A DNA stretch of 64,000 nt, taken from positions 2,530,836 through 2,594,835 of the forward strand of contig NZ_CP028858.1 in assembly GCF_003058365.1 (NCBI RefSeq), in the 5' to 3' direction. This DNA comes from Halococcoides cellulosivorans. Its GTDB lineage: Archaea; Halobacteriota; Halobacteria; Halobacteriales; Haloarculaceae. Of the stretch, positions 18,230 through 39,196 are shown one piece after another. Position numbers and translations under genes: made by a program. Position 1 is the first letter of the stretch; each line of letters opens with the position of its first letter. The notes below the pieces were generated by a model, which saw only the letters and a list, made by a program, of their open reading frames with translations, did no database searches and had not been told where the DNA came from.

Positions 18230-19072
18230 ATGACTCTTCGCACCGACGGGAGGGGAACTTCCCTACCGTCGCTTGGCTCGACATATTCTCACGACGAGGT
18301 GTCGATGGCACTCACCAGATGCGGACTCCTCGTGGATAGAGCGGAGACGCTCGCTCGGCTGTACGCCCACCATCGGGACTGGACTGTCGTCGAAGAGAAA
18401 TGGGTTGAAGAACGCTTCGACGAGCGCAGCACGCGTGGGAGTTCGAAAACAATCTACCGGGCTCTCAGTTCCCGTTTCAAGACTGCTGGTAGCGAACTCC
18501 CGTCTATCGTCCAACTCCCCTCCGTCCTCGACCAGTGTGAGACGGTGCGCGACAAAGCTCAGGTGCTGTACTTCTACTTGCTGGAGGACGACCCACTCGT
18601 GAAGTACACCGTTCACCGGTACGTCGACCAACTTCAGGAATCCGGTGTCGAGGGACTGAATTTCGAGCAGGAGACGGTCAATCGCCTTCTGAACGAGTTC
18701 CACTACGACGACGGAAGCGAGTTTGACTATGCGGAATCGACGACCCGTCGATGGGGAGAAGGACTCCGATCGGTGATGCGAGAAATCGGTGTTCTCGATA
18801 CCCAGCAGTCTCTTCGAGGGCAAATTCCCAACATGGGAACGACGCCACTACTCGTGGCGTCAGGTTACTCGTGGGAGACCCACGGGGATGACTGGCTCTC
18901 CCAGCCGACTGGCTGGCTCTACCTCTTCCAATCGGAACAGTACTGGGACTCCTTGGCCGAACGAGTGAGCGACGATTCAAACTGGGAAGCGAGTGGGATT
19001 CACGGTGAGCTGAGACTCCAGCCGGTCAGCGATACATACGACTGGGCCGAACCATGGGAGGGCAAAGTATGA
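18230..19072 (+). CDS. brxA: BrxA, DUF1819 family BREX protein
   Basis: 280 residues. The N-terminal pattern (SMALTRCGLLVDRAETLARLY, then SSKTIYRALSSRFK) matches DUF1819/BrxA proteins, which are small helical proteins needed for many BREX systems and bind DNA in characterised bacterial cases. It is the first gene of the rightward BREX operon and overlaps the next gene as ATGA. The start at 18230 is the first ATG in frame; an internal ATG 25 codons later would cut into the family core. Confidence 0.8.
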   Translation: MTLRTDGRGTSLPSLGSTYSHDEVSMALTRCGLLVDRAETLARLYAHHRDWTVVEEKWVEERFDERSTRGSSKTIYRALSSRFKTAGSELPSIVQLPSVLDQCETVRDKAQVLYFYLLEDDPLVKYTVHRYVDQLQESGVEGLNFEQETVNRLLNEFHYDDGSEFDYAESTTRRWGEGLRSVMREIGVLDTQQSLRGQIPNMGTTPLLVASGYSWETHGDDWLSQPTGWLYLFQSEQYWDSLAERVSDDSNWEASGIHGELRLQPVSDTYDWAEPWEGKV

Positions 19073-22000
19073 CTGACGAGAGCTGGTTCGCAACCGATGT
19101 CGGGAGCGATTTCGAGGAGTCTGTCCGCATTGACCGCGAAGACGACGGTCGTGATCACCGGCTGCAATCAATTGATACCTACCACGTGACGGCGGAGTCC
19201 GAGGAATTCATGTCCGACTTCTTTTCGCGCCTGCTCGGCCGTTCCGAGGATATGCGGTCGGGTGCGAACTACTGGCTCTACGGGTACTACGGGAGCGGAA
19301 AGAGTCACCTCCTCAGCGTGCTTCGTGGCCTGCTGGATAGCGAATGGCTTCGAGAGCGCGAGGATGTCTGGGAGCAGCTAACCGACGGTCGTGAGCTGGA
19401 CACGCTTAAGTCCATCTGGTCATCGATCCACGAGGAATACGAGATCATTCCGATCTCGGTGAACCTCTTGAAGCATCAGGGCCAGAAGAAACTGAGTTTC
19501 AGCGAGATCGTGCTCCGAAGCGCTCACACGTCGGAACGGCTCACCGGTGTCGATGGGGGGCTCTCGTCGCAGCTTGACGTCGCATTCTTTGAGGACTGGT
19601 ACCGGACGACCGACGCATGGGATGACCGGACGATCAACACCCAAACGGCACTACGGAGTACGGTTGACAGCCCCGAGAAGTACGGCTGGGAGGACGTCCA
19701 GCAGTACAACGCCCTCGCGGACGCCGTTCTTCCCACGCTCTTCGAGCAGGAAACCGGCACCGGGGATGGTCTAGAGGACTTGGTGCCGTCCGATCTCGAC
19801 CCGCAAGCGATGGTCGAGCGCCTCGAACAGTTGCGGAGCGATCGCGCAGAGGAACTTGGTCACCCGGTCAAACTCGTTCTACTCCTCGACGAGGTCAGTC
19901 TCTTCATCGGGACGGATTTCGACCGTCTCACCGAGTTACAGACACTCGCCGAGAGCGTCGACGAGATCGGTGACGGCGACATCCAACTGGTGGCGACGGC
20001 ACAGGCCAAAATCGAGGACGTCCAACCGCAGTTTGCGGCTCGCGGGGCCGACTTCAGTATCGTTAAAGATCGCTTCCCTCACCGGTTCGGACTCCCGAGC
20101 AGACACGTCGGGGAGATCTCGACCCAGCGACTGCTCAAGAAGACCGGGGACGGCAGACGGGCAACGGAAAGCGTCCTCGAACGCACCAGTAACGAACCAG
20201 AGACGCTGCTCGTGTATTCGGGTATCGAACAGAACACCGAACCGCCGCTTGACGACATCGACCGCGAGCGACTCGTCGAGTTCTATCCGTTCCTCCCGTA
20301 TCAGCCACCGCTGTTCCTCGACATTCTCTCGAACCTCCGGCGGGAAGCCCGCGATCCAGCCAAGTCGATCTTCTCAGGGACTGCCCGGGCCATTCTGGCA
20401 CTCGTCCACGGCCTTCTTCAGGAGTGGATCGAGGTCGGCGAAGAGGCACATCTCGTTTCGCTTGTCGATTTTTACGACCTCATCGAACCGGAACTCGAAG
20501 ACATCACGCCGCAGGACGTTGCCGTCATTGAGGAGATCGAAGGCCAACAGGAACAGGGCGAACTGGAAGACCTCGACGTGGATGTCGCGAAGGCCGTTTT
20601 GCTCCTCCAGCACGTTCCCGAGACGATTCCCATGTCCGAGCGGAACCTTGCGGTGGCCATACTGAGCGACCTCGACGGCCCGACTCAGTTCCAAATGGAA
20701 AACCGAGTCGAGGATTCACTCCAGCGTCTCCGGAAATTCATTCGGCCCACGCACGACGAGACAGGGCCGAAGTACGCCTTCACCCACCCGGAGGAGCGGG
20801 AGATTATCGAGACCGCCGAGCAGAACCTCGACGACCCTGACTGGGAGGCTATCATCGAGTCCGTCGACAACTACCTCTGGGACGACGTTGTCCGCGATCT
20901 CTCACTTCCAACGTCCGTCGAGTACGCCAACACTGGCGAGCAGTATCCTGTTCGCTACGACTTCAGCGTTGACGGCATCGCTTTCGATACGACCGCCGAG
21001 GCCGACGACGCGCTCGATGTCGAGGTCGCCATCGAAGGATTGTCACCCGAGGTATCGGAGGTCGACTATGATAGCAATCCGCTCGAATGGAGGATCAGCA
21101 GGGACGGTCTCGAAGATCTCCGTGATAACCTCATCGAGTGGTGGTCGCTCAGGGCCGCCGTCGGCGACCACACGCTCCCGCAGTCTGTGGAGCGTGATCT
21201 CTCGGATCGGGCGACGCGCGTCCGAAGCAAGCTCGTCGAGACCCTCAAGAGTGGCTCGTTTGCCGTCAAGGATCGGACTGACCTTCGTGGACTGGCCTCT
21301 GCGGTCGAAGAATTTGTCGATGTTCGCTATCCCGACGACTTCCACCCCGTCATGCTGCAGATTAGCGATGAGCACCTCCAGGAACTCCGAGGACTCTCGG
21401 CCCAAGACCCGCTGCCTGCGTGGGCTCGACAGATCGAGGTTGCGACTGAGGATCCGGAGACCCACGGCGGTTCCATTCAGAACAACGTGCGGGCATTCAC
21501 CGGCCAGCAATTGAAGCAGAGCCACGGCAGTCTCGCGATGACTACCATTATCGACGGGATTGTGGAGAAGGAAAATCAGCAGCGTCAGAAGACCTCTGAA
21601 CTCGCAGTGTATGGCAATACCCGGCCAGCATTGTGTGCCATCATCTGGGGGCTCTGTCGCAAGGGTGACTTCCTCCCCGTCGACGAGACAGGGGATTCTC
21701 TCGAACTCGATTCGGTCATCGATCTAAACGAACTGATGACTACGCGCCTCAAGATTGCAGGAGGGAGTGGCGTCCGCGAGGTACTCGAGGCTGGTGGCTT
21801 CATCGACTCGACGGAGACGATCCCGGACGGAATGGTCAGGCTCCAGTCTGCGAACGACACGCTGGCCAGCCGCCTTGGGAGCCTCATCGAGGACGTGAAA
21901 CTGGTCGCAGAAAGCGATGTCCAGACCCAACACATTCAGAATCTGCTCGATTCGTTTGTCGACGCTCTTGAAGACAAGCAACAGGACGCTTACGACCGCC

Positions 22001-22779
22001 ACGAGGCTGTCAAGTCCCGCGACACCGACTGGAAGCGGGTCGTCGAAGCCACTAACGCCGCCCAGGAGTGGTATGATGACGCCAAGGAGGTGTGGAACCT
22101 CCGCCTGCCGGCACTTGTACAACTCGATGCCCAGCTCACTCTCGCTCGACAGTCCTTCGACTGGCTGACTGACGAGTGCGAAACTGCCAGCCGGACGCTT
22201 CGGGACACTATTGCTGAGTACGACGACGAGTGGTGGACGCACGACGGATGGGACCGGTTCAACGATGCTCGCACTGTCTCGCCGTCATTGGACGACGCCA
22301 TTGAACATGCGTGGCAGGCGTTCCGAGACTCGACTGACGTCGATGCGCTCGTAAGCGAACTCGATGACCACCCGTGGATACGACCACCGAGCGAATTCGG
22401 GTCGAACGTCCGTCCCGCCTTCGGGAACGAATACATCACGCCGCTTCGCCGTGCTGTATCGTGGTACGAAGACATTTCGGGGGCTATCGATACCGTGACT
22501 GGCGGTACGACGGGCACCGAGGCGGATGCCCTCATCCGAGCGACGGACACGGTTGTCGACACGGAGCCTCTCCGCGTGGTCACAAGCAGTGGGGTCAGCG
22601 AACTTCGGGCTACGTTCGAACAGTTGCAGACAGTCGTCGGCGACCAGCTACCGTCGAATGTCATTGCGATCGGTGTGCTTCCGTCTGATCGGGGGTCCCT
22701 GGACGCTGAACTCGAGCGATTGGCCGAACGGCGCGATCTCAGTATCGAGCGGACAGAAACGGGGGTGATCGTCCGATGA
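19069..22779 (+). CDS. brxC: BrxC/PglY-type P-loop ATPase, first copy
   Basis: 1236 residues from ATG 19069, chosen because it overlaps the brxA stop by 4 bases. A Walker A motif GYYGSGKS lies at residues 72-79 and a Walker B LLLDEVSLFI near 260. The rest is long, helical and acidic, as in BrxC/PglY (DUF6079-type) proteins. BrxC is an essential ATPase of BREX exclusion. Two brxC/pglY copies in one locus are a hallmark of BREX type 5, described from haloarchaea. The 3' end overlaps brxB by 4 bases. Confidence 0.85.
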   Translation: MTDESWFATDVGSDFEESVRIDREDDGRDHRLQSIDTYHVTAESEEFMSDFFSRLLGRSEDMRSGANYWLYGYYGSGKSHLLSVLRGLLDSEWLREREDVWEQLTDGRELDTLKSIWSSIHEEYEIIPISVNLLKHQGQKKLSFSEIVLRSAHTSERLTGVDGGLSSQLDVAFFEDWYRTTDAWDDRTINTQTALRSTVDSPEKYGWEDVQQYNALADAVLPTLFEQETGTGDGLEDLVPSDLDPQAMVERLEQLRSDRAEELGHPVKLVLLLDEVSLFIGTDFDRLTELQTLAESVDEIGDGDIQLVATAQAKIEDVQPQFAARGADFSIVKDRFPHRFGLPSRHVGEISTQRLLKKTGDGRRATESVLERTSNEPETLLVYSGIEQNTEPPLDDIDRERLVEFYPFLPYQPPLFLDILSNLRREARDPAKSIFSGTARAILALVHGLLQEWIEVGEEAHLVSLVDFYDLIEPELEDITPQDVAVIEEIEGQQEQGELEDLDVDVAKAVLLLQHVPETIPMSERNLAVAILSDLDGPTQFQMENRVEDSLQRLRKFIRPTHDETGPKYAFTHPEEREIIETAEQNLDDPDWEAIIESVDNYLWDDVVRDLSLPTSVEYANTGEQYPVRYDFSVDGIAFDTTAEADDALDVEVAIEGLSPEVSEVDYDSNPLEWRISRDGLEDLRDNLIEWWSLRAAVGDHTLPQSVERDLSDRATRVRSKLVETLKSGSFAVKDRTDLRGLASAVEEFVDVRYPDDFHPVMLQISDEHLQELRGLSAQDPLPAWARQIEVATEDPETHGGSIQNNVRAFTGQQLKQSHGSLAMTTIIDGIVEKENQQRQKTSELAVYGNTRPALCAIIWGLCRKGDFLPVDETGDSLELDSVIDLNELMTTRLKIAGGSGVREVLEAGGFIDSTETIPDGMVRLQSANDTLASRLGSLIEDVKLVAESDVQTQHIQNLLDSFVDALEDKQQDAYDRHEAVKSRDTDWKRVVEATNAAQEWYDDAKEVWNLRLPALVQLDAQLTLARQSFDWLTDECETASRTLRDTIAEYDDEWWTHDGWDRFNDARTVSPSLDDAIEHAWQAFRDSTDVDALVSELDDHPWIRPPSEFGSNVRPAFGNEYITPLRRAVSWYEDISGAIDTVTGGTTGTEADALIRATDTVVDTEPLRVVTSSGVSELRATFEQLQTVVGDQLPSNVIAIGVLPSDRGSLDAELERLAERRDLSIERTETGVIVR

Positions 22780-23357
22780 CGAGCAAGCGACCGCTCCACG
22801 ACTTCACGGAGCGACTCGCCCGGTTCGCGGACGGGAGACGCGGCATCCGGAACCCGTTCGTAATCGTCCCTGTCCAGCCGAAATACGAGCGACGCGTCGC
22901 CAACCGCCTCGTCGAGTGGGCTGACAACCCACACGAAACAGAAGAGTTCCCCAAAGATGGTACCGTCCAAGTTCTCCGCTTGGACGAGTTGCTGGTGGAG
23001 ACCGAGGTGTTCGATCTCGCGGTTGACCTCGGCAAGGAGACCGAGCCGGCAACGATCAAGGACACGATGCAAGATCGACTCGCCGAAGAGCTGGTCGAGG
23101 TCATGGTCGAAGAAATTTCCGCTCCCAATCAGCAGCGTCACGTGGTCGTCTTGACCCATCTCGGAAGTCTCTATCCCTTCACGCGGGCCTCGGAGCTGCT
23201 GGACGAACTCGACCGTCGCAACGTCCAGTCGACGATCGGCATTCCGTTCCCCGGAGACATCGTCGGCGGGAAGTTGAGCTTTTTCGGCGAGGAATCGCGG
23301 AACTACTATCCCGCCCACCAGATCGACGGTCGTATCGAGGAGGTGCATCTCCAATGA
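22776..23357 (+). CDS. brxB: BrxB, DUF1788 family BREX protein
   Basis: 193 residues. The DUF1788 pattern is clear: VVVLTHLGSLYPFTRASELL, a GIPFPGD turn, a KLSFFGE stretch and a final YYPAHQI. BrxB is a small core protein of BREX with unresolved biochemistry. Placed between the two brxC copies with ATGA overlaps on both sides, so the four genes are one translation-coupled unit. Confidence 0.8.
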   Translation: MTSKRPLHDFTERLARFADGRRGIRNPFVIVPVQPKYERRVANRLVEWADNPHETEEFPKDGTVQVLRLDELLVETEVFDLAVDLGKETEPATIKDTMQDRLAEELVEVMVEEISAPNQQRHVVVLTHLGSLYPFTRASELLDELDRRNVQSTIGIPFPGDIVGGKLSFFGEESRNYYPAHQIDGRIEEVHLQ

Positions 23358-26300
23358 GTGACCACCGAATCCACGACATCTTCCAGCAGCCACCGACCCG
23401 CGAACTCGAGGAAGTCCAGAAGGTCAACGCCAGAGCGCAGGCCGAGAACGACGTGCGCGAGTTCTACGAAACCGACAGCGCACGGAGTGTTCTCACGACG
23501 CTCGGGAATCTCGTCGACAAGTACCCCCAGGAGGAACCGCGCTTCCTGTACATCTCCGCGACGTTTGGATCGGGGAAGACCCACCTCCTGAAACTCGCCG
23601 GTTTCGCCGCGGATACCGAGTCGGAGTTCGCCGATCTCGGCGAAGAGCTGGCGAGCCGGTGGCCGGGCTTTCAGTCGTTCAGACAGAGCATCGCGGACTC
23701 TCACGTCGACCGCCTGAAGCCGGTCTTTCTCAACCTCCTCAACAGAGACGCATCACAAGAGCCGCCACTCCCCTACCTCATCTACGAAGCCATCGGTCGG
23801 GAACTCGGGTATCCGACCGATCCAAACTGGCTGCTGGAGTGGGCGTGGCAGCTGGAGATGAATCACGGCGACTGCTGGGAGCAACTTCAGGAGATCGAAT
23901 ACGACGGGCGGACGTTCGACGAGGTGTACGACGAGCGTGCCTCGCTGCGAAGCTGGCTCTATGGAGCCGTTCCCACACTCGACGACTCGCCGTATCGCTC
24001 CAGCGACGAGGTGAAACGCTCGATCGACGACGCCATCGACGAGGTCGACCCGGACGAGTTCGACCCCGACGAACTCGTCGACCGGATCGAGGCGGCGCAG
24101 GCGGCGCTGAGTACGCCCGAGACAGAGACGGAGCTGTTGATCGGCCTTGACGAGGTGGCACTGTTCATCGGCGACGGCCGCCACCGCTACCGGGAGTTCC
24201 AAGAGACGATGGAGGCCCTGACTAACCCTGTGACGGGGCCGAACCCACCCATCGTCGGGACGGGACAGTATCCCTTCGATCGCATCCACGGGGAGTTCGA
24301 GGATTCCGACGTCACCAACGAGCCGTGGTGGGGCGAGCAGGAGCCACTGGAGGGGGCTGACACAGAGATCATCGTCCGCAAACGATGGCTCCAGAAGGAC
24401 GGCGACAGCGAACAGGTGGTCGACGCGACAGTTCAGGAGCTTTCCGACCTCACGCTCGATACGTACGCGGACATCACGGGCGCGGATCCCGATGCCGTCG
24501 AGTCGTATCCGTTCCGCGAGTACGACCTCGGGCTGTTACGCACGGTGATCCAGCAGTTGATGCCGCGGGGTCGCGTGACCGAGGAGGAGTACGTACAGGG
24601 CCGGGCCCTGCTCATCCTCGTGCGGTCGCTGTTCACCCGGTTCGAGTGGGGCGAGAAGTCCGTCGGGGCGCTCGTCACGTGGGACGAGTTGTACGACCTG
24701 CTGGTCGAGGAGACGACCTATGTCCCGCTGTGGGTGCAGGAGATGGTCGAGAACAAGCTCGTCCCGTCCGCAGATGGGGATGAAGGTACGTTCTCGGTGC
24801 GGGTCGCGAAGGCGCTATACCTCCTGAATCAGGTTCGCTCGGAGGTGCCATCCACGCCGGAAAACCTCGCCCGGCTGATGGTTGGGTCGACTGACACGTC
24901 ACTCGGAGACGTCCAAGACGACGTCGAATCGGCGCTGGCAGACCTCGTCGAGGACCGTAAAGTACTGACCGAGACGAACGACCGCGGCGACGAGGAGTAC
25001 TTGCTCGTCTCCGAGGAGCAGGAAGACATCCTAACACGAGCGAAGACACGTGCCCAGCAAATCTCGTCGCACCGGCTGTCGGCCAAGCTGGAGACGTACC
25101 TGCAGGATGGAAACGATCACCTGCTTTCGGAGGGCAGTCGCCACGAGGTCGACCTCGACAGCGAGCGTCGGGTACCGCTCCGGTTGGAATACTCCGTCCT
25201 CGATCCGATCGAGCGGGCCCCTACTCCGGAGTTCGATGCGATCCGCATTCGGCTTGTCGCCGATCGCCCCGACACGGTAACCGATCAGGTGGACGCGTGG
25301 CAATCGACCAACGAGGGGCAGGACGGCGGCGAGCACGTCCTCGTGGCCGTGGAGGTCTCGGAGTCGACGGTCGAGCGTCTGCGGGACGTGATGGGGATGC
25401 AAGAAGTCCTCTCGGAGGAGACGGAAACCTATCCGGACTTGGAGTCCGACCACCGCGACGATCAGCGTGCGCTCGAGTCGACGGTGCGTAACCAACTCGA
25501 GGAAGCCGACGTCTACGTCCGAATTGGTGACACGAGGGGTCGTTACGGCGACGTGTTCGAGCAGGTCGTGACGAGTCAGGTGCAGTCGGTCTTCGGCCAG
25601 ACGAGGCACGCTTTGACGAACGGGATCACCGAGGTCGACGATGCGAAGCAGATGGCGCGGTTCTTCCGCGGTGTCGACGACTGGCCGCTGTCGAGTGAGG
25701 ATGCCGTCACTCTCGGTGTGGACACCGATCGGGGAGAACTCGCCGACGGCTGGTGTCAGGAGGTCATCGACGACTACGAGAACACCCAGTCGCTCCGTGG
25801 TGAGGACTTGCTCGCCCAGACCGTCCAGCGCGGGGGTAACTACCGTGGGACACCGCGGGAGTCTATCGCGGCGCTACTGATTACACTCGCCACGGCCAAC
25901 GAGATTGCGCTCCGGCGCGACGACGAGTACATCACCGAACCCGGGGAGATCGGACGGGCGGTCAGGAACAAGACGAATCTGACCGACGTTCAGATTCGCT
26001 TCGAGTCTTTGGAGGGCATCGATCCCGACCAGATTCGGGACACCGTCCGGACGGTTATGGACGAGTCCCCGGAGGGGAGCGACCCGGACGCGTGGCTCTC
26101 TGGGCTGGCCGAATGGGTCAAGGAGAACAGCGTCCTCGTGAAACGCGTCTTTCGGGGCGTCAGCAGAGAGTTCGGCGAGGGTGCGTCGCTGGATGAGCTT
26201 GAGGACGCTCTTGAACAGGCACTCGGCGGTGAGGCGCTCGAGACCGAAGACTTCGCGACCGATGCGGTCGAGCGACAAGCCGAACGGTTCGCTCGGGCCA

Positions 26301-27196
26301 GGGGGCTGTTCCGTCCGGACGAGGACGGTGAGACGCTCTGGGATCGGTTTAGCGAAAGGACGGCCGAGATGCAGCGGCTGCATCCCGGTGCGGACGTCAC
26401 CGGCGATATGCAGAGCACTGCCGGCGGTAGCGAGGTGCCCGACGCCGAGCGACTGCAGACATTGATCCACGAGGCAGACGTCCACAGACAGCGCGTTGTT
26501 CGGGAGCAGTACGAGCGCATAACCGGTGAAACGCCGGCCGATGAGGCGCCCGAGAGCGTCGTCTCCAGCCTCACGACGTGGCTCTTTGCCCACGACGCGA
26601 GTAGTAAGGAAATTGGTGACCGCGTCTCGGTCGAATTCGAGGGCCTAACCATCGATGAATTGTACGCCCTCTTCGAGACGGCGTGGGAAGGCGACTCGTT
26701 CTCGGAAGAGAAACTCGTTGATCCGACGGTCGTCCAGCAGGCCAAGCGATACTCGAAGGCACGAGAGCTCCTCGAATCACCCGACGGTGAGGCCAGTCTC
26801 TGGTCGCAGCTTCAAGACGCATCGAGGCGGCTCGATGAGGAGTATCCGAACCACCCGGTCACGAGTAACGTGGAGGAGACACTTGCCCAGTCACGACCGC
26901 CGTCCATTACTGAGGTCGAGGAATTGCTTGAGGCAGCCGAGAAACCATTTGATATCGACGAACGATTGGAGAAATTGGCCAGTGAACTCCAGTCGGAGTA
27001 TCCGGACCACGATACGACCAAAGACATTGTCGCTGCCGTCGAAGCAGACAGCCCACCAGGTGATGAGCGTGTGCGGGAGTTGATCTATGCTGCCGAACAG
27101 TTGCTTGATGGCGGCGACGGGAGGTTGAAGCAAATTCGGGAGACGATGGATGCTCTCGACGATGGCTCAGTTGTGTTGATCGAATCTCTCGAATGA
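23354..27196 (+). CDS. brxC: BrxC/PglY-type P-loop ATPase, second copy
   Basis: 1280 residues. Walker A ATFGSGKTH at about 69-77 and Walker B IGLDEVALFIG near 260, at almost the same positions as in the first copy, but the proteins are only distantly alike. The C-terminal third contains repeated helical units, each with a KRYSKARELLESPDGE-like or RARGLFRPDEDGE-like element. Last gene of the uninterrupted BREX transcript; 61 bases separate it from the nuclease gene. Confidence 0.85.
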   Translation: MSDHRIHDIFQQPPTRELEEVQKVNARAQAENDVREFYETDSARSVLTTLGNLVDKYPQEEPRFLYISATFGSGKTHLLKLAGFAADTESEFADLGEELASRWPGFQSFRQSIADSHVDRLKPVFLNLLNRDASQEPPLPYLIYEAIGRELGYPTDPNWLLEWAWQLEMNHGDCWEQLQEIEYDGRTFDEVYDERASLRSWLYGAVPTLDDSPYRSSDEVKRSIDDAIDEVDPDEFDPDELVDRIEAAQAALSTPETETELLIGLDEVALFIGDGRHRYREFQETMEALTNPVTGPNPPIVGTGQYPFDRIHGEFEDSDVTNEPWWGEQEPLEGADTEIIVRKRWLQKDGDSEQVVDATVQELSDLTLDTYADITGADPDAVESYPFREYDLGLLRTVIQQLMPRGRVTEEEYVQGRALLILVRSLFTRFEWGEKSVGALVTWDELYDLLVEETTYVPLWVQEMVENKLVPSADGDEGTFSVRVAKALYLLNQVRSEVPSTPENLARLMVGSTDTSLGDVQDDVESALADLVEDRKVLTETNDRGDEEYLLVSEEQEDILTRAKTRAQQISSHRLSAKLETYLQDGNDHLLSEGSRHEVDLDSERRVPLRLEYSVLDPIERAPTPEFDAIRIRLVADRPDTVTDQVDAWQSTNEGQDGGEHVLVAVEVSESTVERLRDVMGMQEVLSEETETYPDLESDHRDDQRALESTVRNQLEEADVYVRIGDTRGRYGDVFEQVVTSQVQSVFGQTRHALTNGITEVDDAKQMARFFRGVDDWPLSSEDAVTLGVDTDRGELADGWCQEVIDDYENTQSLRGEDLLAQTVQRGGNYRGTPRESIAALLITLATANEIALRRDDEYITEPGEIGRAVRNKTNLTDVQIRFESLEGIDPDQIRDTVRTVMDESPEGSDPDAWLSGLAEWVKENSVLVKRVFRGVSREFGEGASLDELEDALEQALGGEALETEDFATDAVERQAERFARARGLFRPDEDGETLWDRFSERTAEMQRLHPGADVTGDMQSTAGGSEVPDAERLQTLIHEADVHRQRVVREQYERITGETPADEAPESVVSSLTTWLFAHDASSKEIGDRVSVEFEGLTIDELYALFETAWEGDSFSEEKLVDPTVVQQAKRYSKARELLESPDGEASLWSQLQDASRRLDEEYPNHPVTSNVEETLAQSRPPSITEVEELLEAAEKPFDIDERLEKLASELQSEYPDHDTTKDIVAAVEADSPPGDERVRELIYAAEQLLDGGDGRLKQIRETMDALDDGSVVLIESLE

Positions 27197-27257
27197 TCGA
27201 ACCACTACGATTCGCCATGTTGAAAAGTATTAGTCGGTCGTGGTTGTCTGCCCGACT

Positions 27258-27902
27258 ATGGTCGACATCGAATGGTCGCTGAAGCAACTCGATCAAATTC
27301 ATCATTCTGAAGATCATTTCAAGCTCTCGCTCGGCGCTGAGCTGGCTCAGATGTATGGGGACGAACGCGTCCGGTTAGAATGGCAGCCAGCAACGCAAGC
27401 ACAAGTTGACATCGGGATCAGGCGGAGCGGCGTGACAATTCCTGTCGAACTCAAGTACAAGACTGATGCTGCGACAGTTGAAGACGATGTATTTAACGAA
27501 TCTTTCACACTCGCATCACAGGGCGCTCAATCGGGTGCTCACTATTGGATTTTTGAGGACATCAAACGCATCGAGAACATCGTGAACGAGCAGGGGCGAT
27601 ACGGGTACGTCGTGGTGTTGACCAATGACTCGAACTACTGGTCGGAGCCATCAGAACCGTACGAGGCCCTCCACGATGCATTCCGAATTCACGAGGGGCG
27701 GACCGTCGAGGGAACACTGGAGTGGCGTGACCGTAGAGACTGGATTGAAGACAACGGCATGTCTGCGCCGATCGAATTGAGTGGTCGATATCAGATGGAG
27801 TGGTCAGACTACAGCTATCGGGACGAAATTTCCGTCCGGAACAATCCAACCTTTCGGCATCTGGTCGTTCGGGTTGACTCGGCAGACGTGGGAGAGGGGT
27901 AG
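27258..27902 (+). CDS. PD-(D/E)XK nuclease-like protein nested in BREX
   Basis: 214 residues from ATG 27258 (an upstream in-frame ATG would add six residues). A PD-(D/E)XK core is visible: D51 (QVDIGI), then E64-x-K66 (PVELKYK), preceded by a helix with E29. The gene follows brxC copy 2 by 61 bases and ends 14 bases before the antisense kwaB stop. It could be a BREX accessory nuclease or part of the same insertion that brought Kiwa. Codon use is less GC-rich than in the brxC genes, which favours insertion. Confidence 0.55.
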   Translation: MVDIEWSLKQLDQIHHSEDHFKLSLGAELAQMYGDERVRLEWQPATQAQVDIGIRRSGVTIPVELKYKTDAATVEDDVFNESFTLASQGAQSGAHYWIFEDIKRIENIVNEQGRYGYVVVLTNDSNYWSEPSEPYEALHDAFRIHEGRTVEGTLEWRDRRDWIEDNGMSAPIELSGRYQMEWSDYSYRDEISVRNNPTFRHLVVRVDSADVGEG

Positions 27903-27916
27903 CGACCTGATGGTAT

Positions 27917-28927
27917 CTATCCGGCGTCTTGCTTTGAGAGTGAGATGTACTGCTCGTCTGTGAGTGGCGAGTCAAGGTGATCATCGTTGAAGAAGCGAAG
28001 TACAGCCCACACATCCCGCTTGTCGTCCATTTTAACCGCCATCTCTCCCTCATCGTTCTCTTCAAACTTCACGTCGGTGTCGAAATTGTCCCGGATGTAC
28101 TTCGCATCGTCAGAGTCCAAATCCTCGTAAGTCCCTCGCTCGTGAACCTTGTACATTAGCCGGAGAACCCGGTTGTTTCCATAGACAGCATCTTTGAACA
28201 TCCCGAAGTCGTGGAAGGGAATGTCAGTGTCGTCAATTGCGTCGATGACCTCGTCGGCGCAGCGTTCATATTCGGCCAGATAGTCGAAGACCTTCTCAAA
28301 CTTGGATTGGTTGAAGATGTACATCAAATCGTCGTAGTAGACGGCATCGACACGGTCGGGGATGGAGATTAGGGATTCGTCTACCTTTCTGTGTTTTTCA
28401 CTCCCGACCTTCATGCGGGTCCAAGAAGTTCTCCCCATAATCTGCCGCCGACTGTAGTGGAGAAACGCAATCGCCATCTCATCATTATCCTCGTCACGCA
28501 ACCGGATTGCTTGGAATTCCGGTTTAGGTGGTTCAGTGTATGTGGTATGGTTGAACCGCTGCCCTTCCAGCAACCGTCCGAAATTGTCGAACTGAGGGAT
28601 GTTGTCGGAAAACTCGTACTGGACGAAGGTCTGATCCCGATCGCGATTTTCGAGGCTGTATTCCGAGAAACGGATGCTCTCATTTTCCAGTGCGGATCGC
28701 TTGCTTTCGACCTTCTCGCGAAACAGCCCCTCCAATTCCTCGGGAATCTCTTGATCTAACGAGATGCGCTCGAACTTGTAGTCGTAATCCTCAACGCTAC
28801 CTTCGTCTAAACGAGCCAGTAGGAGATCGATCCCGAGTTCGTTGGTATCGACGATCTCAATCCGTCGGAGAAAATCGACCAGTCTGTCGAATTGATCTCG
28901 AGCGTCGCTCCGGCTCGCTGAACTCAT
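27917..28927 (-). CDS. kwaB: KwaB, DUF4868 protein of a Kiwa defence pair
   Basis: 336 residues, close to the usual KwaB length. The sequence has the overall DUF4868 character: an N-terminal helical part, a central beta-rich part (FQAIRLRDEDNDEMAIAFLHY, then IPDRVDAVYYDDLMYIFNQSKFEKVFDY) and a C-terminal part ending in LTDEQYISLSK. In Kiwa, KwaB binds DNA and works with the membrane sensor KwaA against phage (established). Here a membrane protein gene directly upstream overlaps by 4 bases, reproducing the kwaA-kwaB order. It is antisense to BREX. Confidence 0.7.
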   Translation of the reverse strand: MSSASRSDARDQFDRLVDFLRRIEIVDTNELGIDLLLARLDEGSVEDYDYKFERISLDQEIPEELEGLFREKVESKRSALENESIRFSEYSLENRDRDQTFVQYEFSDNIPQFDNFGRLLEGQRFNHTTYTEPPKPEFQAIRLRDEDNDEMAIAFLHYSRRQIMGRTSWTRMKVGSEKHRKVDESLISIPDRVDAVYYDDLMYIFNQSKFEKVFDYLAEYERCADEVIDAIDDTDIPFHDFGMFKDAVYGNNRVLRLMYKVHERGTYEDLDSDDAKYIRDNFDTDVKFEENDEGEMAVKMDDKRDVWAVLRFFNDDHLDSPLTDEQYISLSKQDAG

Positions 28928-29496
28928 TGCCTTGTAGTGATATACACTTCACTACTAATTCTTGCGGTGTTGATTGTGATGTCATTGCCATCCAGCCGAT
29001 CTTTGGTTAGAAGAATTCGTTTATCTTGCTCTGTCTCGACTTCATAAACTCGGTAACGGAAGGCGACCAGCACAGGGTTGACAAAGAGACGATTAGACCG
29101 GATCACAATCGCTGCGACCGTGACAAACAAAACCAGAAATGCCGCTACATCGAACACGTTAGCGAATTCGAAGACGATGAACGGGAAGATATAGACCAAC
29201 AGATATTCCGTGAACATGTCCGACCGATTTCGGTACTGTTCGATCTCGCTCAATTGGCCCTGACGCGTACGGTTCATCCGGATCATGATGGTCAAGAAGG
29301 CGACGCTGACAACAGTCAAAATCAAGGAACCAATCGAGAGATAGGACAACTCGAGAAAGCCGACAGCGACTGGTTCAAGCCGGTATCCCAGAATCGAATG
29401 GACGGCGTCGTGGGCGCGAAGTGCGACAATGATGTAGAGCGGGCTGTAGGAACTGAGGAAAAGGACGACCTTAGCCCAACTCGGTATGCGCCCCAT
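28924..29496 (-). CDS. kwaA: KwaA-like four-span membrane protein of Kiwa
   Basis: 190 residues from ATG 29496; a TTG three codons upstream is possible. Four hydrophobic segments are visible (about residues 9-28, 44-70, 97-115 and 117-135), with a soluble basic and polar C-terminal tail. KwaA proteins are four-span membrane proteins of similar size. The identification rests on topology, size and 4-base overlap with the DUF4868 gene, since the sequence itself has few signatures. Together the pair would form a membrane-associated anti-phage module. Confidence 0.6.
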   Translation of the reverse strand: MGRIPSWAKVVLFLSSYSPLYIIVALRAHDAVHSILGYRLEPVAVGFLELSYLSIGSLILTVVSVAFLTIMIRMNRTRQGQLSEIEQYRNRSDMFTEYLLVYIFPFIVFEFANVFDVAAFLVLFVTVAAIVIRSNRLFVNPVLVAFRYRVYEVETEQDKRILLTKDRLDGNDITINTARISSEVYITTRQ

Positions 29497-29660
29497 TAGG
29501 TGCAATAGATTCTATACGGAAGTCAAAGTGACTTTTGTATCAATTCTTCTATCAAGATTTCAGAAAGTAGGCAGCGATTCTATCAGCGATGGATGAGGGC
29601 GTTGATAGACAATCTTCAAGACACTCCCGTGGTTCTCAACGAGACATCGCTGACCTTCAT

Positions 29661-34044: not shown

Positions 34045-36045
34045 ATGAAAGAGGAACTCCGAGAGCAGGCATGGGACACCCTGCACCAACAGTACGACGA
34101 GAACCGTATCGTTGAGAAGCCAGAACTGCTACATACATCCGCTAGACCTGATTTTGGGATCCGCCATGAAGACAGTCGAGATCTGCTCGTCTTGGTCAAC
34201 GTTAGTTCCATGAGGACCCGGCACCGGAGACGTGAAGATATCGAGTCTCTCAAACGGATGTTAAATAAAGCAGATGTCGCGTTTGGAGCTCTAATTTCAG
34301 ACAATATAGAATATATTTTCGAACTAACTGAATATGATGGAGAACAAGTGGAGCGAGAGATTCCGGATTACCCAGATAGCCGGGATAGCGAGTTCGAAGA
34401 GATGTTATCAGCGGCAGAACTCGAATTCCGCTTGTGGCGTGCTGCGGATATTTTGCGCGACCAGATGCCCCAGAATGAATATTCCTACCAGCTATTTCAC
34501 GCACTCTTCCGAAAATGGATAGCAAACGAGCATGGGGAGGAAATCGATATTCAAGCTATCGACGAACGGTGGCTTGACGAAAAAGACTCTCAAATTGAAG
34601 ATCGGTTTTCGGCGTACACACCAAGCGTTGCCCCCCGTAACGTTGAGGTTCATCGTCAGATTCTCCGGGCCTTCGAGGAGGTGAACCTTAGTGCGATTCA
34701 GCCAAGTGCTGCCCGGGCTTTCGTGGAACTCGTCGAATCATCCCGTTCAGATTCTGCATCGATGACACCGATTCGCGTTGCTGATGCACTTGTTGACCTT
34801 GCTAGGCCTGCTGATGGGGATCTCTTTCTGGATCCGGCGGGGGGAATCGGGAATGTTGCTCGTGAAGCTGCCCATCGAGGAGCCGACGTCTTGGCGGTCG
34901 ATATCAACCCTGAGGCTGTGAATAGTGGTCTCTTTCTCAGTGCGGTCCACGACGTCGATGTATCGTACACTGTGGCTGATTTCTTGGAGGCTGCTCAATC
35001 CAACAGCTCTACTCTTCCTGATGATCTCGATAAAGTTGTTATTGACCCACCATTCGGGCTTCATTACGAGCAACCGGATGGGTCCCATGTCCGGAATGCC
35101 GAAGAATTGTTCATCCGAGAGTCGCTTAAACGATTGAAACCAGGCGGCACAGTTACCGTTGCCGTTCCTCAAGGAAGTTTATTCAAGCGTCAGTGGGCAG
35201 ATTTCCGTGACTTGATCACGGACGAGTACCGACTTTCGACCATAATCGAAGTGAATAAGCCTGTTTTTCAGCACACTGCTGTCCCGACTGCAATTATCCA
35301 GATTGTCAACGAACCTGCTGAGGACTCATCTGAAGTTGAGTATGATATCGTTTCAGAATCAGACGCAGAGCGGGGACTGGCAAGATCCGTCGATAATATC
35401 TTGAAGTCTTCCACTCCATCACTGCAAATCCGAGAGTTACGCGAGGGGTCGTTCCTCCCGAGCGAGATTATTGGTAGACAAGAAATTGTTGAACGAATTA
35501 ATGATAATTACACCCAGCTGGATATTGTTGAACTTGGGGATAGAGCCAATGATATCCGATCAGGGATTAATCCCTCAGAATCGTCTACGGAGCAGACTCC
35601 GAACACAGTTCCTTTCCTACGCCCCAAGGACGTAAACGATGGTGGTCCAGAAGAGTATATACCTGCAGAAGAAGCAAATGTAATTGCGGATATTGGTGAT
35701 GTTCTTGTATCCGTAAAGGGGTCTCCATCTGTCGTTCATGCACCCAGAGAAGCTATTGTTCCTTCCTCAAGTTGGGCTGTCATCCGAGTTGAGTCCCCAG
35801 ACGTTGCGTTGGTCTATGCAACCTACATTGATTCAGAACTTGGCCGAGACCAGTTAGAAATGATGCGTGGTGGTTCGAGCATTCCATATATCTCGCTACG
35901 GCGTTTACGCGAGCTTCTCGTTCCCGACTTCAAAGACTCAGAAATCATAGAGAAAGCCTCGGAGATTCGCTCTCTCAAAGAAGAGATTCAAGACCATGAG
36001 CGGCGGCGTGAGGCGCTTGAAAATGAGATCGAGGATCTCGTGTGA
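34045..36045 (+). CDS. Adenine methyltransferase fused to HsdS-like specificity domain
   Basis: 666 residues. Order: an N-terminal 110-residue segment resembling a degraded restriction-type nuclease domain (ARPDFGI, then VLVNVS where an E-x-K would be expected); a helical linker; a methyltransferase with motif I DPAGGIGN (263-270) and motif IV DPPF (334-337); then a target-recognition-like domain (PFLRPKDV, GDVLVSVKGSP, SIPYISLRRLRELLVPD) ending in a coiled coil. This is a self-contained M-S protein like type I or IIB/IIL enzymes without a restriction subunit. It lies between pglX and pglZ in an AT-rich cassette with the next gene 9 bases downstream. Confidence 0.7.
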   Translation: MKEELREQAWDTLHQQYDENRIVEKPELLHTSARPDFGIRHEDSRDLLVLVNVSSMRTRHRRREDIESLKRMLNKADVAFGALISDNIEYIFELTEYDGEQVEREIPDYPDSRDSEFEEMLSAAELEFRLWRAADILRDQMPQNEYSYQLFHALFRKWIANEHGEEIDIQAIDERWLDEKDSQIEDRFSAYTPSVAPRNVEVHRQILRAFEEVNLSAIQPSAARAFVELVESSRSDSASMTPIRVADALVDLARPADGDLFLDPAGGIGNVAREAAHRGADVLAVDINPEAVNSGLFLSAVHDVDVSYTVADFLEAAQSNSSTLPDDLDKVVIDPPFGLHYEQPDGSHVRNAEELFIRESLKRLKPGGTVTVAVPQGSLFKRQWADFRDLITDEYRLSTIIEVNKPVFQHTAVPTAIIQIVNEPAEDSSEVEYDIVSESDAERGLARSVDNILKSSTPSLQIRELREGSFLPSEIIGRQEIVERINDNYTQLDIVELGDRANDIRSGINPSESSTEQTPNTVPFLRPKDVNDGGPEEYIPAEEANVIADIGDVLVSVKGSPSVVHAPREAIVPSSSWAVIRVESPDVALVYATYIDSELGRDQLEMMRGGSSIPYISLRRLRELLVPDFKDSEIIEKASEIRSLKEEIQDHERRREALENEIEDLV

Positions 36046-36054
36046 GGTGATATA

Positions 36055-36894
36055 ATGAGTGATGCTTCTATCCCTATTGACGATTCACCGGCTGTAAGCG
36101 AGGAACTCATTCAAGATCAAATCGATACCTGTAACGACCGTGTAGCGGAAATAATTGGAGACCGTCTGGATCTGGAAGACGAGGACGACATCTACCAAGA
36201 TATCGACGGTTTTCTTGGTCAAGTTGAGGATGCTACTCTCGATTGCTTTTCCGACCGATACCAGACCTCCACTTTATTTGACCAGCTCAAGTTCTTTCTC
36301 CGAGCTTTGATTAAAGAACGGGATTTTGAGGACAAGCTTTTCCGAGAAGAACGAGGCCAGCAGAAGATCCAGGATAACCCAGTTGACCTATGTCGCTGGA
36401 TTAAACTGTATGCTACAATCGCACTGGACTCCCCAATCGAGATCGAATATATCTTTGCAATTGAACAGTTCAACCTCTATCGGGAGGGGTACATCTCTCA
36501 CCCTTCGGATTTACCCACTCCAGGGCAGGAAACTGATCCCACTCTCTTGAGCTCAATTCTTCTCATTTGGTACGCAATGGAGGAAATAATTGATATCTGG
36601 GGAGAGATTTTAGACCTCGAAGAAAGCGATCCATCAAAAAATATAGAAGATATATTGAGTGGCACTGAATTACAAGTCGGATATATTAGCATGCTTGAGG
36701 AGCAACGCGGCTTCATCAGGACGTTCCAGGAGGGTGTCGGAGGCCAAGATCTGAGAATTGAGCCAAACCATATCTCGTATTTTGCTTCTGAGGGAGATAT
36801 CGTCCAATTTGAAGCACCCGATGGTTATGGCTCTGCGGGACACCATGCGTATGACCCAGATGATGAGTCAATTGAGGTCGAAAAATATATTTGA
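36055..36894 (+). CDS. Unknown partner of the methyltransferase-specificity protein
   Basis: 279 residues, acidic and mostly helical, without a recognisable motif, signal or span. It starts 9 bases after the M-S gene stop and shares its AT-rich codon use, so both probably arrived together and are co-translated. The tight pairing suggests a restriction effector, inhibitor or chaperone for the methyltransferase, but nothing in the sequence selects among these. Confidence 0.55.
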   Translation: MSDASIPIDDSPAVSEELIQDQIDTCNDRVAEIIGDRLDLEDEDDIYQDIDGFLGQVEDATLDCFSDRYQTSTLFDQLKFFLRALIKERDFEDKLFREERGQQKIQDNPVDLCRWIKLYATIALDSPIEIEYIFAIEQFNLYREGYISHPSDLPTPGQETDPTLLSSILLIWYAMEEIIDIWGEILDLEESDPSKNIEDILSGTELQVGYISMLEEQRGFIRTFQEGVGGQDLRIEPNHISYFASEGDIVQFEAPDGYGSAGHHAYDPDDESIEVEKYI

Positions 36895-37003: not shown

Positions 37004-39196
37004 ATGCAAGCATCCAAATCTCTCCCAGAAGCCGCGAAAGACACGATTCGCCGCAAATTCGATGGAGCAGAGTCGGAAGATCCGATAGTCCTCTGGTGGG
37101 ATGATGGCAACTACCTTGAAGACATCCTCCAGCAGGCTTGCTCCGAACTGGGTGTCCCGCTGAAGACTGCTGAAAAGACACCGCTCGAACTCCGTTCTGA
37201 CCCCGTCGACGGCGAACAGGTCTGGTACGTCCCACACGTCAAAGAACCAGCCGATAGAGAGGGCGACTACGACTGGTTCCGCGACGTCCAGCATACGGGC
37301 AGCGAGGTAGAGATGAGCATCGAAGACCTCACCGTCCACGCGTTTGAGCGCGGGCAACTCGATGCGTGGAAACTGAAGAACGCTACCGAGTCCGACGACC
37401 CACAGCAGCGCCGGGAGATCGCGCGAATTCTTCATGAGCAGCTCACCGGTGGCCAGCTCCCAACGCTCGAACAACTCCAGACCCAAATCGTCACCGGTGG
37501 GTACACCGATCCCGTGGCGTTCGTGCTGGAGAACGGCTGGGCAGATATCGACGACGACCCCCAGACCATCGACCAGATGAAGGACTTGCTGACCAGCGAG
37601 GGCGTCGACGCGGTCGCCGACGAGACTGATCCCACAGTCATCGAAACCCAAACGCGTCGGTGGGCGGTCGCGGAGTGGTTGATTCACGCCGGCGCCGACG
37701 CCGACCGCTTCCCTAGCGAGTTCCGGGCCGAAACCGCGGGCGCTCACGACCTCCCGGAACTCAAGTCCCTGCTGAACAACACGACATCACCTGACCTGAT
37801 CGCTGACCGCTATCTCGGTGAGGCGATGTGGCCCGACGTCATCGATTCCATCGACGATCCGTGGGAACTGTCGAGTTGCATTGTCGACGCCGCACTCGAA
37901 CGCCGTCTCTGGAAGGAGTGGCACGCGTCCTTCGACGCAGGCGACTACAAGGAGTGTCTCGACCGAGCAGAGGAACGGTACGAAACCCTCCTCGGGAGCG
38001 AAGACAGACACGGGAACTACCGAGGCGCCTTTGGCCCAGACAGTCCGTGGACACAAACGTGGGAGCAAGCCGCCGAGGTCGCGCGTCTCGCACATCAACT
38101 CGACACGTGGGACGAACGCGTGAACGACGACGTCGTCTCCCTGTACGCGGACGATGACGATGGCACGTGGCAGATCGACAACGCCGTCCTCAATCTCGTC
38201 GTCTCAGGCGAACCGGAGACCGACCTTCCTGGTGACCACCCGGCGACCGAGACGCTCAATGACCTCCGCACCCAGCTCCAGTCGGACTACGTCGACTACC
38301 TCGAAGACCTCGGCGACCTCGTCACTGAGACCGTCGAGGCAGGCGCTCCCTTCGTCGATGAGGATCACGCCTACCAGTTCTTCACCAAGGAGTCCGACGG
38401 CCTCGAAAGCGGGCAGACGGTCGCGCTGTTCGTGATCGACGCTCTTCGGCTTGACCTCGCCCGACGCCTTGCGGACGAACTCCGCGAGTACGTGGCAACT
38501 CTCCCAGCCGACGCGCCCGAGTTCGCCGTCGAAGAGAGTGTCTGGCTGGGGACGCTCCCCTCGGAGACCGAGTTCGGGAAGGCCGCTCTCACGCCTGGCG
38601 AAGTGCAGATGTTCGACATCTCGCTCGTCGACGGCGAGCTGCTACCGCTCCGCAACAACCGAAAAGTCACTCCAAACCGACGAAATTCGCTGTTAGACGG
38701 CGACGGCTGGACGGTCACCCGCGAGCAAGACGACGGCTGGCAGTCCACGCGTGTGGCCTACTTCAAGAACGACCTCGACAATATTGGCGAGACGGAACTC
38801 AGCGACCTCGAAGCAATGCTCGCCCAGCGTGTCGACTCGCTCGCGGAGTTCATTGGGACGAAAATCGAGCAGGGCGAGTGGGATCAGGCATACGTCTTGA
38901 CTGATCACGGGTTCGTTCTCCTTCCTGACGACGTAACCCCGGAGAAGATCTCGCGGCCGTCAGAGGCGTCGGACTCCGGACGTCGGTGGATCGCCGGCGA
39001 GGACGTCGACGAGGACTCACCCGGTGTGCTGCTCGACGCCAGCACTCGGTTAGGCTATCTTGACGCCAACGTCAGCGCCTTTGCGAGCCCACTCAAGCGA
39101 ATCAGCAAGCAGGGCGTCGGCGACGCCCGCTTTTACCACGGTGGGCTTCTCCCCCAGGAGTTTGTGCTCGACTTCATCAGTATCACGCAGGGTTAG
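37004..39196 (+). CDS. pglZ: PglZ, BREX alkaline-phosphatase-fold protein
   Basis: 730 residues. The PglZ metal site is seen as VIDALRLDLAR (D479) and VLTDHG (D634, H635), with a LPSETEFGKAAL stretch between them, typical of PglZ. The N-terminal half is helical. PglZ is the one component shared by all BREX types and is a metal-dependent nuclease or phosphatase-fold enzyme in characterised cases. GC-rich composition returns abruptly at this gene after the AT-rich cassette. Confidence 0.88.
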   Translation: MQASKSLPEAAKDTIRRKFDGAESEDPIVLWWDDGNYLEDILQQACSELGVPLKTAEKTPLELRSDPVDGEQVWYVPHVKEPADREGDYDWFRDVQHTGSEVEMSIEDLTVHAFERGQLDAWKLKNATESDDPQQRREIARILHEQLTGGQLPTLEQLQTQIVTGGYTDPVAFVLENGWADIDDDPQTIDQMKDLLTSEGVDAVADETDPTVIETQTRRWAVAEWLIHAGADADRFPSEFRAETAGAHDLPELKSLLNNTTSPDLIADRYLGEAMWPDVIDSIDDPWELSSCIVDAALERRLWKEWHASFDAGDYKECLDRAEERYETLLGSEDRHGNYRGAFGPDSPWTQTWEQAAEVARLAHQLDTWDERVNDDVVSLYADDDDGTWQIDNAVLNLVVSGEPETDLPGDHPATETLNDLRTQLQSDYVDYLEDLGDLVTETVEAGAPFVDEDHAYQFFTKESDGLESGQTVALFVIDALRLDLARRLADELREYVATLPADAPEFAVEESVWLGTLPSETEFGKAALTPGEVQMFDISLVDGELLPLRNNRKVTPNRRNSLLDGDGWTVTREQDDGWQSTRVAYFKNDLDNIGETELSDLEAMLAQRVDSLAEFIGTKIEQGEWDQAYVLTDHGFVLLPDDVTPEKISRPSEASDSGRRWIAGEDVDEDSPGVLLDASTRLGYLDANVSAFASPLKRISKQGVGDARFYHGGLLPQEFVLDFISITQG

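What the first reader, a model, noticed from the sequence alone, without database searches (positions are those of the whole stretch)
27917..29496. Kiwa pair inserted antisense inside BREX
A DUF4868 (KwaB-like) gene and a four-span membrane gene overlap by ATGA in kwaA-kwaB order and oppose the BREX operon between brxC and pglX. Kiwa has been described mostly in bacteria; BREX and Kiwa are reported to cooperate in E. coli, so physical nesting in an archaeon would be striking.
Basis: partly seen in the sequence, partly recalled or inferred. Interest (0 to 1): 0.75.

Follow-up and report, generated by a model that had tools for sequence, protein, structure and literature searches.

The report
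Kiwa defence pair nested inside archaeal BREX
A two-gene antiviral system called Kiwa sits back to front inside a second antiviral system, BREX, in a salt-loving archaeon; the same nesting recurs in seven further haloarchaeal genomes and plasmids, which suggests that the two systems are inherited and moved together.

Summary
They overlap by ATGA and lie antisense between brxC2 and pglX of a type 5 BREX locus in a haloarchaeon. Identity rests on PADLOC and Pfam profiles, sequence matches to solved Kiwa chains, and AlphaFold/Foldseek matches to the KwaA-KwaB structures.

The case is not unique. In 392 Halobacteria genomes, 27 carry KwaB; seven of these pairs lie in the same brxC2-pglX gap (six antisense, one sense). 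An eighth lies on a Halobacterium plasmid. The gap is a cargo slot, 21 bp to 7.7 kb long in 45 loci, holding many unrelated genes. The eight nested pairs form one strongly supported clade whose divergence tracks BrxC2 (91/90%, 53/54%) but not PglX. Both genes are intact in all eight; dN/dS is at most 0.11 among the seven antisense pairs. kwaA and pglX diverge across about 164 bp with separate conserved promoter-like blocks.

Best reading: a dedicated, co-inherited Kiwa module adding a membrane-sensing, DNA-binding layer to modification-based BREX. Kiwa also lies inside type I R-M operons in two other archaea. Functional coupling is untested. The claimed BREX-Kiwa cooperation in E. coli was not found in the papers available.

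The parts
28924..29496 (-). kwaA, 190 aa, four predicted membrane spans; membrane sensor of Kiwa
   Evidence: PADLOC KwaA 4.8e-26; NCBIfam KwaA 4.9e-21, below the equivalog cut-off; PDB 9mrg KwaA, phmmer 3.1e-6, profile 5.3e-14; AlphaFold model (pLDDT 82) vs 9mrx_A, E 1.2e-10, TM 0.78; hydropathy spans
27917..28927 (-). kwaB, 336 aa, DUF4868 / KwaB; DNA-binding effector of Kiwa; ATGA overlap with kwaA
   Evidence: PADLOC KwaB 1.3e-20; Pfam PF16162 8.5e-16 over cut-off; profile vs PDB KwaB 9mrx_K 1.2e-7; AlphaFold model (pLDDT 80) vs 9mrx_D, E 7e-11, TM 0.59
29497..29660 (.). divergent kwaA / pglX intergenic region; kwaA-proximal 19-bp motif TCAAAGTGACTTTTGTATC at 29523-29541 (inverted repeat CAAA-N6-TTTG) and a pglX-proximal leader block
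   Evidence: alignment of seven antisense loci and comparison with non-Kiwa BREX-5 loci
27240..27902 (+). 220-aa ORF (start perhaps 27258), convergent with kwaB with 14 bp between the two ORF ends; PD-(D/E)XK-like motif D-x12-E-x-K; relatives in other BREX-5 loci
   Evidence: no profile match; motif read from the sequence; relatives L110 (76%) and Halorarius/Halocatena plasmids
18230..19072 (+). brxA (BREX-5)
   Evidence: PADLOC BrxA 3.8e-168
19054..22779 (+). first brxC (brxC1)
   Evidence: PADLOC BrxC 2380 bits
22776..23357 (+). brxB
   Evidence: PADLOC BrxB 1.1e-117
23354..27196 (+). second brxC (brxC2); left edge of the cargo slot
   Evidence: PADLOC BrxC 2475 bits
29661..33983 (+). pglX (BREX-5 adenine methyltransferase); right edge of the cargo slot; longer ORF from 29589
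   Evidence: NCBIfam NF033454 2273 bits; start from profile alignment and conserved leader
34045..36894 (+). cargo of the second slot (pglX-pglZ): methyltransferase-specificity fusion (666 aa) and a 279-aa acidic protein
   Evidence: PADLOC/Pfam N6 MTase and type I specificity matches for the first, none for the second
37004..39196 (+). pglZ (BREX-5)
   Evidence: PADLOC PglZ 1445 bits
40029..42959 (+). brxHII helicase
   Evidence: PADLOC BrxHII 2093 bits

Best explanation
This is a complete Kiwa system (KwaA + KwaB) carried in the brxC2-pglX cargo slot of a type 5 BREX locus and oriented divergently from pglX. It belongs to a Kiwa lineage that lives in this slot and is inherited and transferred with the BREX-5 core as one island. 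Shown here: identity of both genes, location, recurrence, one clade, co-divergence with BrxC2, purifying selection, separate conserved promoter-like blocks. Inferred: BREX-5 methylates host DNA and blocks unmethylated viral DNA. KwaA, in the cell membrane, senses virus entry and recruits KwaB, which binds entering DNA and stops its replication and late expression, as published for bacterial Kiwa. Kiwa would thus be a modification-independent second layer against viruses that escape or inhibit BREX. The divergent arrangement would let it be expressed without interrupting the brx genes.
For: Profiles, solved-chain matches and folds for both proteins. Slot anatomy in 45 BREX-5 loci, 21 bp to 7.7 kb. 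Kiwa in the slot in seven sampled genomes plus the plasmid NZ_CP070334.1. KwaA+KwaB of all eight form one clade (100/99). KwaB and BrxC2 distances correlate among the seven antisense loci (Mantel r = 0.72, p = 0.0006); KwaB and PglX do not (r = 0.04). dN/dS 0.02-0.11 where dS is not saturated; no internal stop codons. Window and G030 lie in different families yet share 91% KwaB and 90% BrxC2, so the unit moves together. The pglX leader is conserved whatever the cargo; the kwaA motif occurs in front of all seven antisense nested kwaA and otherwise only as two weak matches. Kiwa mechanism from PMC12904381 and PMC13190303.
Against: No expression, methylation or infection data. On the BrxC2 tree the Kiwa label needs at least six gains or losses, so Kiwa is optional for BREX-5. 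L062 and L075 share closer Kiwa (88-90%) than BrxC2 (78%), so some exchange is independent of the core. Scores are below NCBIfam's equivalog cut-offs. KwaB is only about 12% identical to the solved bacterial KwaB in the structural alignment, and residues 164-186 of the model are of low confidence. KwaB is very acidic (pI 4.5), as halophile proteins are; DNA binding was not tested. Bacterial Kiwa is tied to RecBCD (PMC11514479), and a counterpart in haloarchaea was not examined.
Confidence: 0.78

Rival explanations
1. Kiwa is merely one of many passenger defence genes in a BREX-5 hotspot. It is retained by chance linkage and recombination at the conserved brxC2 and pglX ends, with no functional relation to BREX.
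For: The two BREX-5 slots hold more than 60 protein clusters, including NucS-like and OLD/Toprim-like proteins and TBP. Kiwa is present in only 7 of 45 slots and was gained or lost at least six times. Outside linked loci, Kiwa and BREX-5 do not co-occur more than expected (3 of 18 Kiwa genomes; Fisher p = 0.72).
Against: All eight nested pairs are one dedicated clade and co-diverge with BrxC2. Kiwa also sits in or beside type I R-M, BREX-1 and Hma/BREX-related loci.
Confidence: 0.4
2. The composite is regulated as one unit: the kwaA-pglX divergent region couples Kiwa expression to the methyltransferase, so that Kiwa is raised when modification is low or inhibited.
For: About 164 bp divergent region; conserved 19-bp inverted-repeat motif beside kwaA and conserved leader beside pglX; tight convergence of kwaB with the upstream cargo gene, 2-73 bp between ORF ends.
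Against: The two conserved blocks are separated by unconserved sequence, and the pglX block is present without Kiwa. In the Halobellus-type locus (L065) Kiwa is in sense orientation. The motif may be only the kwaA core promoter.
Confidence: 0.2
3. The pair is not functional Kiwa but a derived membrane protein plus DUF4868 protein with another role.
For: Scores below the NCBIfam equivalog cut-offs; low identity to bacterial Kiwa.
Against: Both proteins match Kiwa at sequence and fold level, in kwaA-kwaB order with ATGA overlap; the Pfam KwaB cut-off is passed.
Confidence: 0.05

Closest known systems
Kiwa (KwaA-KwaB), solved bacterial system, PDB 9mrx/9mrg/9mtn
   Same: Two genes in the order kwaA-kwaB; KwaA with four membrane spans; KwaB DUF4868; both folds match the solved complex.
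   Different: About 20% (KwaA) and 12% (KwaB) identity in the structural alignments; host is a haloarchaeon; the pair is nested in BREX-5 and belongs to a slot-dedicated clade.
BREX type 5 of haloarchaea (brxA, two brxC, brxB, pglX, pglZ, brxHII)
   Same: All genes present; pglX far over the BREX-5 cut-off.
   Different: Carries Kiwa and a PD-(D/E)XK-like ORF between brxC2 and pglX, and a methyltransferase-specificity fusion between pglX and pglZ.
Auxiliary effectors embedded in BREX loci (Rakesh and Krishnan 2026, PMC12839542; BrxU of E. fergusonii)
   Same: Extra defence genes inside or beside BREX core loci are a known theme.
   Different: That survey lists nucleases; Kiwa and DUF4868 are not mentioned in its text. 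Here the cargo is a membrane sensor plus a DNA-binding protein, antisense and co-inherited.
Kiwa inside type I R-M operons of other archaea (L148, L150, found here)
   Same: Kiwa lodged inside a modification-based operon.
   Different: Sense orientation, between hsdS and hsdR; only distantly related Kiwa.

Membership tests
Kiwa | kwaA gene: membrane protein matching KwaA models | tested here: met
   PADLOC 4.8e-26; PDB KwaA 3.1e-6; four hydrophobic spans
Kiwa | kwaB gene with DUF4868/KwaB domain | tested here: met
   Pfam PF16162 58.9 bits vs cut-off 26.3; PADLOC 1.3e-20
Kiwa | Adjacent co-directional kwaA-kwaB pair | tested here: met
   ATGA overlap at 28924-28927
Kiwa | Folds of the solved KwaA and KwaB | tested here: met
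   All Foldseek hits below E 0.001 are Kiwa chains: best KwaA 1.2e-10, best KwaB 7e-11
Kiwa | NCBIfam equivalog score (a naming threshold, not a biological defining feature) | tested here: not met
   KwaA 75.4 of 100 bits, KwaB 60.7 of 200 bits
Kiwa | KwaA tetramer with KwaB dimers, DNA binding, virus defence | not testable with these tools
   needs experiment; no complex was modelled
BREX type 5 | PglX of the BREX-5 family | tested here: met
   NF033454 2273 bits vs cut-off 900
BREX type 5 | brxA, brxB, two brxC, pglZ, brxHII in one locus | tested here: met
BREX type 5 | Active host methylation and virus exclusion | not testable with these tools
   no methylome or infection data

The most novel reading that the evidence does not exclude
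Kiwa is a plug-in layer for DNA-modification systems in archaea: a BREX-5-dedicated Kiwa lineage works with BREX as one composite system, and unrelated Kiwa lineages have entered BREX-1, Hma/BREX-related and type I R-M loci independently.
Probability: 0.35. Interest if true: 0.75.

Novelty: new variant of a known kind. Interest (0 to 1): 0.62.

Why it matters
Most defence systems are linked only loosely in islands. Here one two-gene system is lodged at a fixed place in another, across several haloarchaeal families and a plasmid, and co-diverges with its core while the methyltransferase is exchanged. That offers a natural test of whether physical nesting reflects cooperation between a modification-based system and a membrane-sensing one. 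It also places Kiwa in a host without the Gram-negative outer membrane, where its sensing mechanism, still unknown, can be studied in a different envelope.

Tried and rejected
Viral contigs: no relative of the nested KwaB found, so a viral carrier is not supported. Single-sequence search of KwaB against the PDB found nothing; the profile did. Single insertion with strict vertical descent rejected: at least six changes on the BrxC2 tree and the L062/L075 mismatch. Genome-level co-occurrence beyond linkage rejected (Fisher p = 0.72). 'Kiwa is essentially bacterial' rejected for Halobacteria and the wider phylum. A census of nested Kiwa by degenerate patterns in GTDB found only two loci, a limit of the method. 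The Cell 2025 Kiwa paper was not held. The L149 Kiwa turned out to be appended after pglX, not nested between core genes, because pglZ and brxL lie on the opposite strand beyond brxC.

Full report
OBSERVATION. The window lies in a 2.72-Mb single-contig haloarchaeal genome, at G000:C1:2530836-2594835. Two minus-strand genes, kwaA (28924-29496, 190 aa) and kwaB (27917-28927, 336 aa), overlap by ATGA and stand antisense between brxC2 (23354-27196 +) with a 220-aa ORF (27240-27902 +) and pglX (+). The pglX start is best placed at 29661: the PADLOC PglX profile begins at residue 25 of the longer ORF, and the leader conserved in other BREX-5 loci ends there.

IDENTITY. KwaA: PADLOC 4.8e-26; KwaB: PADLOC 1.3e-20 and Pfam PF16162 over its cut-off. 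NCBIfam KwaA/KwaB models match (4.9e-21, 1.3e-16) but below their equivalog cut-offs. KwaA matches the solved KwaA chain 9mrg (phmmer 3.1e-6; profile 5.3e-14), and a KwaB profile matches 9mrx_K (1.2e-7). AlphaFold models built from window and locus sequences (KwaA pLDDT 82; KwaB pLDDT 80) hit Kiwa chains and nothing else below E = 0.001 in the PDB: KwaA vs 9mrx_A 1.2e-10, TM 0.78; KwaB vs 9mrx_D 7e-11, TM 0.59. The host locus is BREX-5: PglX 2273 bits on NF033454, with BrxA, two BrxC, BrxB, PglZ and BrxHII.

RECURRENCE. KwaB occurs in 27 of 392 Halobacteria genomes, and BREX-5 PglX passes its cut-off in 60 of 392. Mapping 20-kb loci shows seven Kiwa pairs in the brxC2-pglX gap: antisense in the window, G253 (L062), G241 (L064), G030 (L066), G290 (L071) and G376 (L075); sense in G349 (L065). 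Two records were named by a separate scan, Natronosalvus hydrolyticus and Halobellus rarus, on contigs of the same lengths as those of G253 and G349. An eighth, antisense, is on the 106-kb circular plasmid pBOL4-2_105.9 of Halobacterium sp. BOL4-2. Two more pairs, of a different Kiwa clade, follow brxHII of BREX-5 (L080, L081). Under uniform placement about 0.002 KwaB genes would fall in these gaps; this is only a rough guide, because the loci are related and one is the window itself.

THE SLOT. In 45 BREX-5 loci the brxC2-pglX gap runs from 21 bp to 7.7 kb (median 2.0 kb). Occupants include a 347-aa NucS-like protein (PADLOC PDC-S11), an HTH protein with a DUF6036 nucleotidyltransferase, an OLD/Toprim-like ATPase, TBP paralogues, an 83-aa protein with hydrophobic stretches placed antisense where kwaA otherwise sits, and the 220-aa ORF. 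Kiwa occupies seven of the 45. The second gap, pglX-pglZ, is also variable; in this window it holds a methyltransferase-specificity fusion and a 279-aa acidic protein.

EVOLUTION. KwaA+KwaB of all eight slot loci form one clade (100/99), apart from all non-slot haloarchaeal Kiwa sampled; the nearest outside include L072, next to an Hma-like DUF499/DUF1156-methyltransferase system. KwaB identity follows BrxC2 identity (window/L066 91/90; window/L064 82/81; L064/L071 96/93; window/L065 53/54). PglX does not (L071/L075 54% while BrxC2 is 88%). Mantel among the seven antisense loci: KwaB-BrxC2 r = 0.72, p = 0.0006; KwaB-PglX r = 0.04 (six loci with a full-length PglX). dN/dS is 0.02-0.11 wherever dS is not saturated, and no copy is broken. 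Window and L066 are in different families, and L071 and the plasmid share KwaA 99%, KwaB 95%, BrxC2 91% and PglZ 93%, so BREX-5 and Kiwa move as a unit. Yet on the BrxC2 tree Kiwa needs at least six gains or losses, and L062/L075 share closer Kiwa than BrxC2. The balanced view is long co-residence with frequent loss or replacement and some independent exchange.

ANATOMY OF THE JUNCTION. Between kwaA ATG (29496) and pglX ATG (29661) are about 164 bp. Beside pglX is a leader block (..GACAATCTTCAAGACA..) present in window-like BREX-5 loci whatever the cargo, which marks the right edge of the slot and suggests that pglX has its own promoter. Beside kwaA is a 19-bp motif, TCAAARTSASTTTTGTATC across the seven, with the inverted repeat CAAA-N6-TTTG in most copies. 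At up to four mismatches it occurs in all seven antisense nested loci just upstream of kwaA, and otherwise only as two weak matches elsewhere. The sequence between the two blocks is not conserved. kwaB converges on the upstream cargo gene with 2-73 bp between ORF ends. Base composition differs: kwaA 49% and kwaB 51% G+C against 55-62% for the brx core genes, in keeping with acquired cargo.

HOW IT PROBABLY WORKS. Published bacterial Kiwa forms a membrane lattice of KwaA tetramers and KwaB dimers; infection at the membrane brings KwaB to entering DNA, which it binds, stopping replication and late transcription without cutting (PMC12904381; PMC13190303). BREX methylates host DNA and excludes unmodified phage DNA (established knowledge of BREX). 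The most economical reading is two layers in one island: modification-based exclusion, and entry-site binding that does not depend on modification. This step is inferred; nothing here shows interaction. That KwaA works without an outer membrane follows from general knowledge of haloarchaeal envelopes.

BROADER PATTERN. In the wider phylum Kiwa was found between hsdS and hsdR of type I R-M operons (L150: hsdM-hsdS-kwaA-kwaB-hsdR; L148: hsdS-kwaA-kwaB-hsdR), and appended after pglX in a BREX-1 locus (L149; pglZ and brxL lie beyond brxC on the opposite strand). In Halobacteria, Kiwa adjoins type I R-M (L067), a type IIG-like methyltransferase with BrxHII-like helicase (L082) and Hma (L072). No background rate was measured, so this is a lead.

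COMPARISON WITH THE KNOWN. Rakesh and Krishnan (PMC12839542) describe nucleases and OLD/TOPRIM modules embedded in BREX loci as backup effectors; Kiwa and DUF4868 do not occur in the text. Searches for Kiwa with haloarchaea, BREX with Kiwa and synergy, and Kiwa with nested R-M turned up no paper whose title or abstract reports this arrangement. The library lacks most subscription papers and the Cell 2025 Kiwa paper, so prior description cannot be excluded. NCBI annotation of the plasmid already labels both KwaB and BREX-5.

VERDICT. The finding is real and correctly identified. Kiwa and BREX-5 are known kinds; the dedicated, co-inherited nesting is the new element.

Noticed in passing
window:34045-36894 (+): Between pglX and pglZ: a 666-aa N6-methyltransferase fused to a type I specificity-like region, then a 279-aa acidic protein without any match; possibly a compact R-M module inside BREX.
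   Followed up: partly
window:27240-27902 (+): 220-aa protein with a PD-(D/E)XK-like motif and no library match; relatives lie in other BREX-5 loci and on bacterial plasmids.
   Followed up: partly
window:42984-43472 (+): HNH endonuclease directly after brxHII.
   Followed up: no
L150:5039-13601 and L148:250-6058: Kiwa lies between hsdS and hsdR of type I R-M operons in two other archaeal genera, in sense orientation.
   Followed up: yes
L149:8377-19672: BREX-1 brxC-pglX followed by a TIR-like gene, kwaA, kwaB and a gene matching pAgo/SIR2-Aga profiles, all on the same strand.
   Followed up: partly
L086:10245-10496 (and L096, L103, L105, L129): 83-aa protein with hydrophobic stretches, antisense immediately upstream of BREX-5 pglX, in the place otherwise held by kwaA; the two did not occur together in the 45 slots.
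   Followed up: partly
L075 vs window (pglX): BREX-5 pglX alleles are exchanged (54-58% identical) while neighbouring BrxC2 and PglZ stay 80-90% identical.
   Followed up: partly
L111:9326-9871 and L158:8374-8925: TATA-binding protein paralogues recur as cargo in or beside BREX-5 loci.
   Followed up: no
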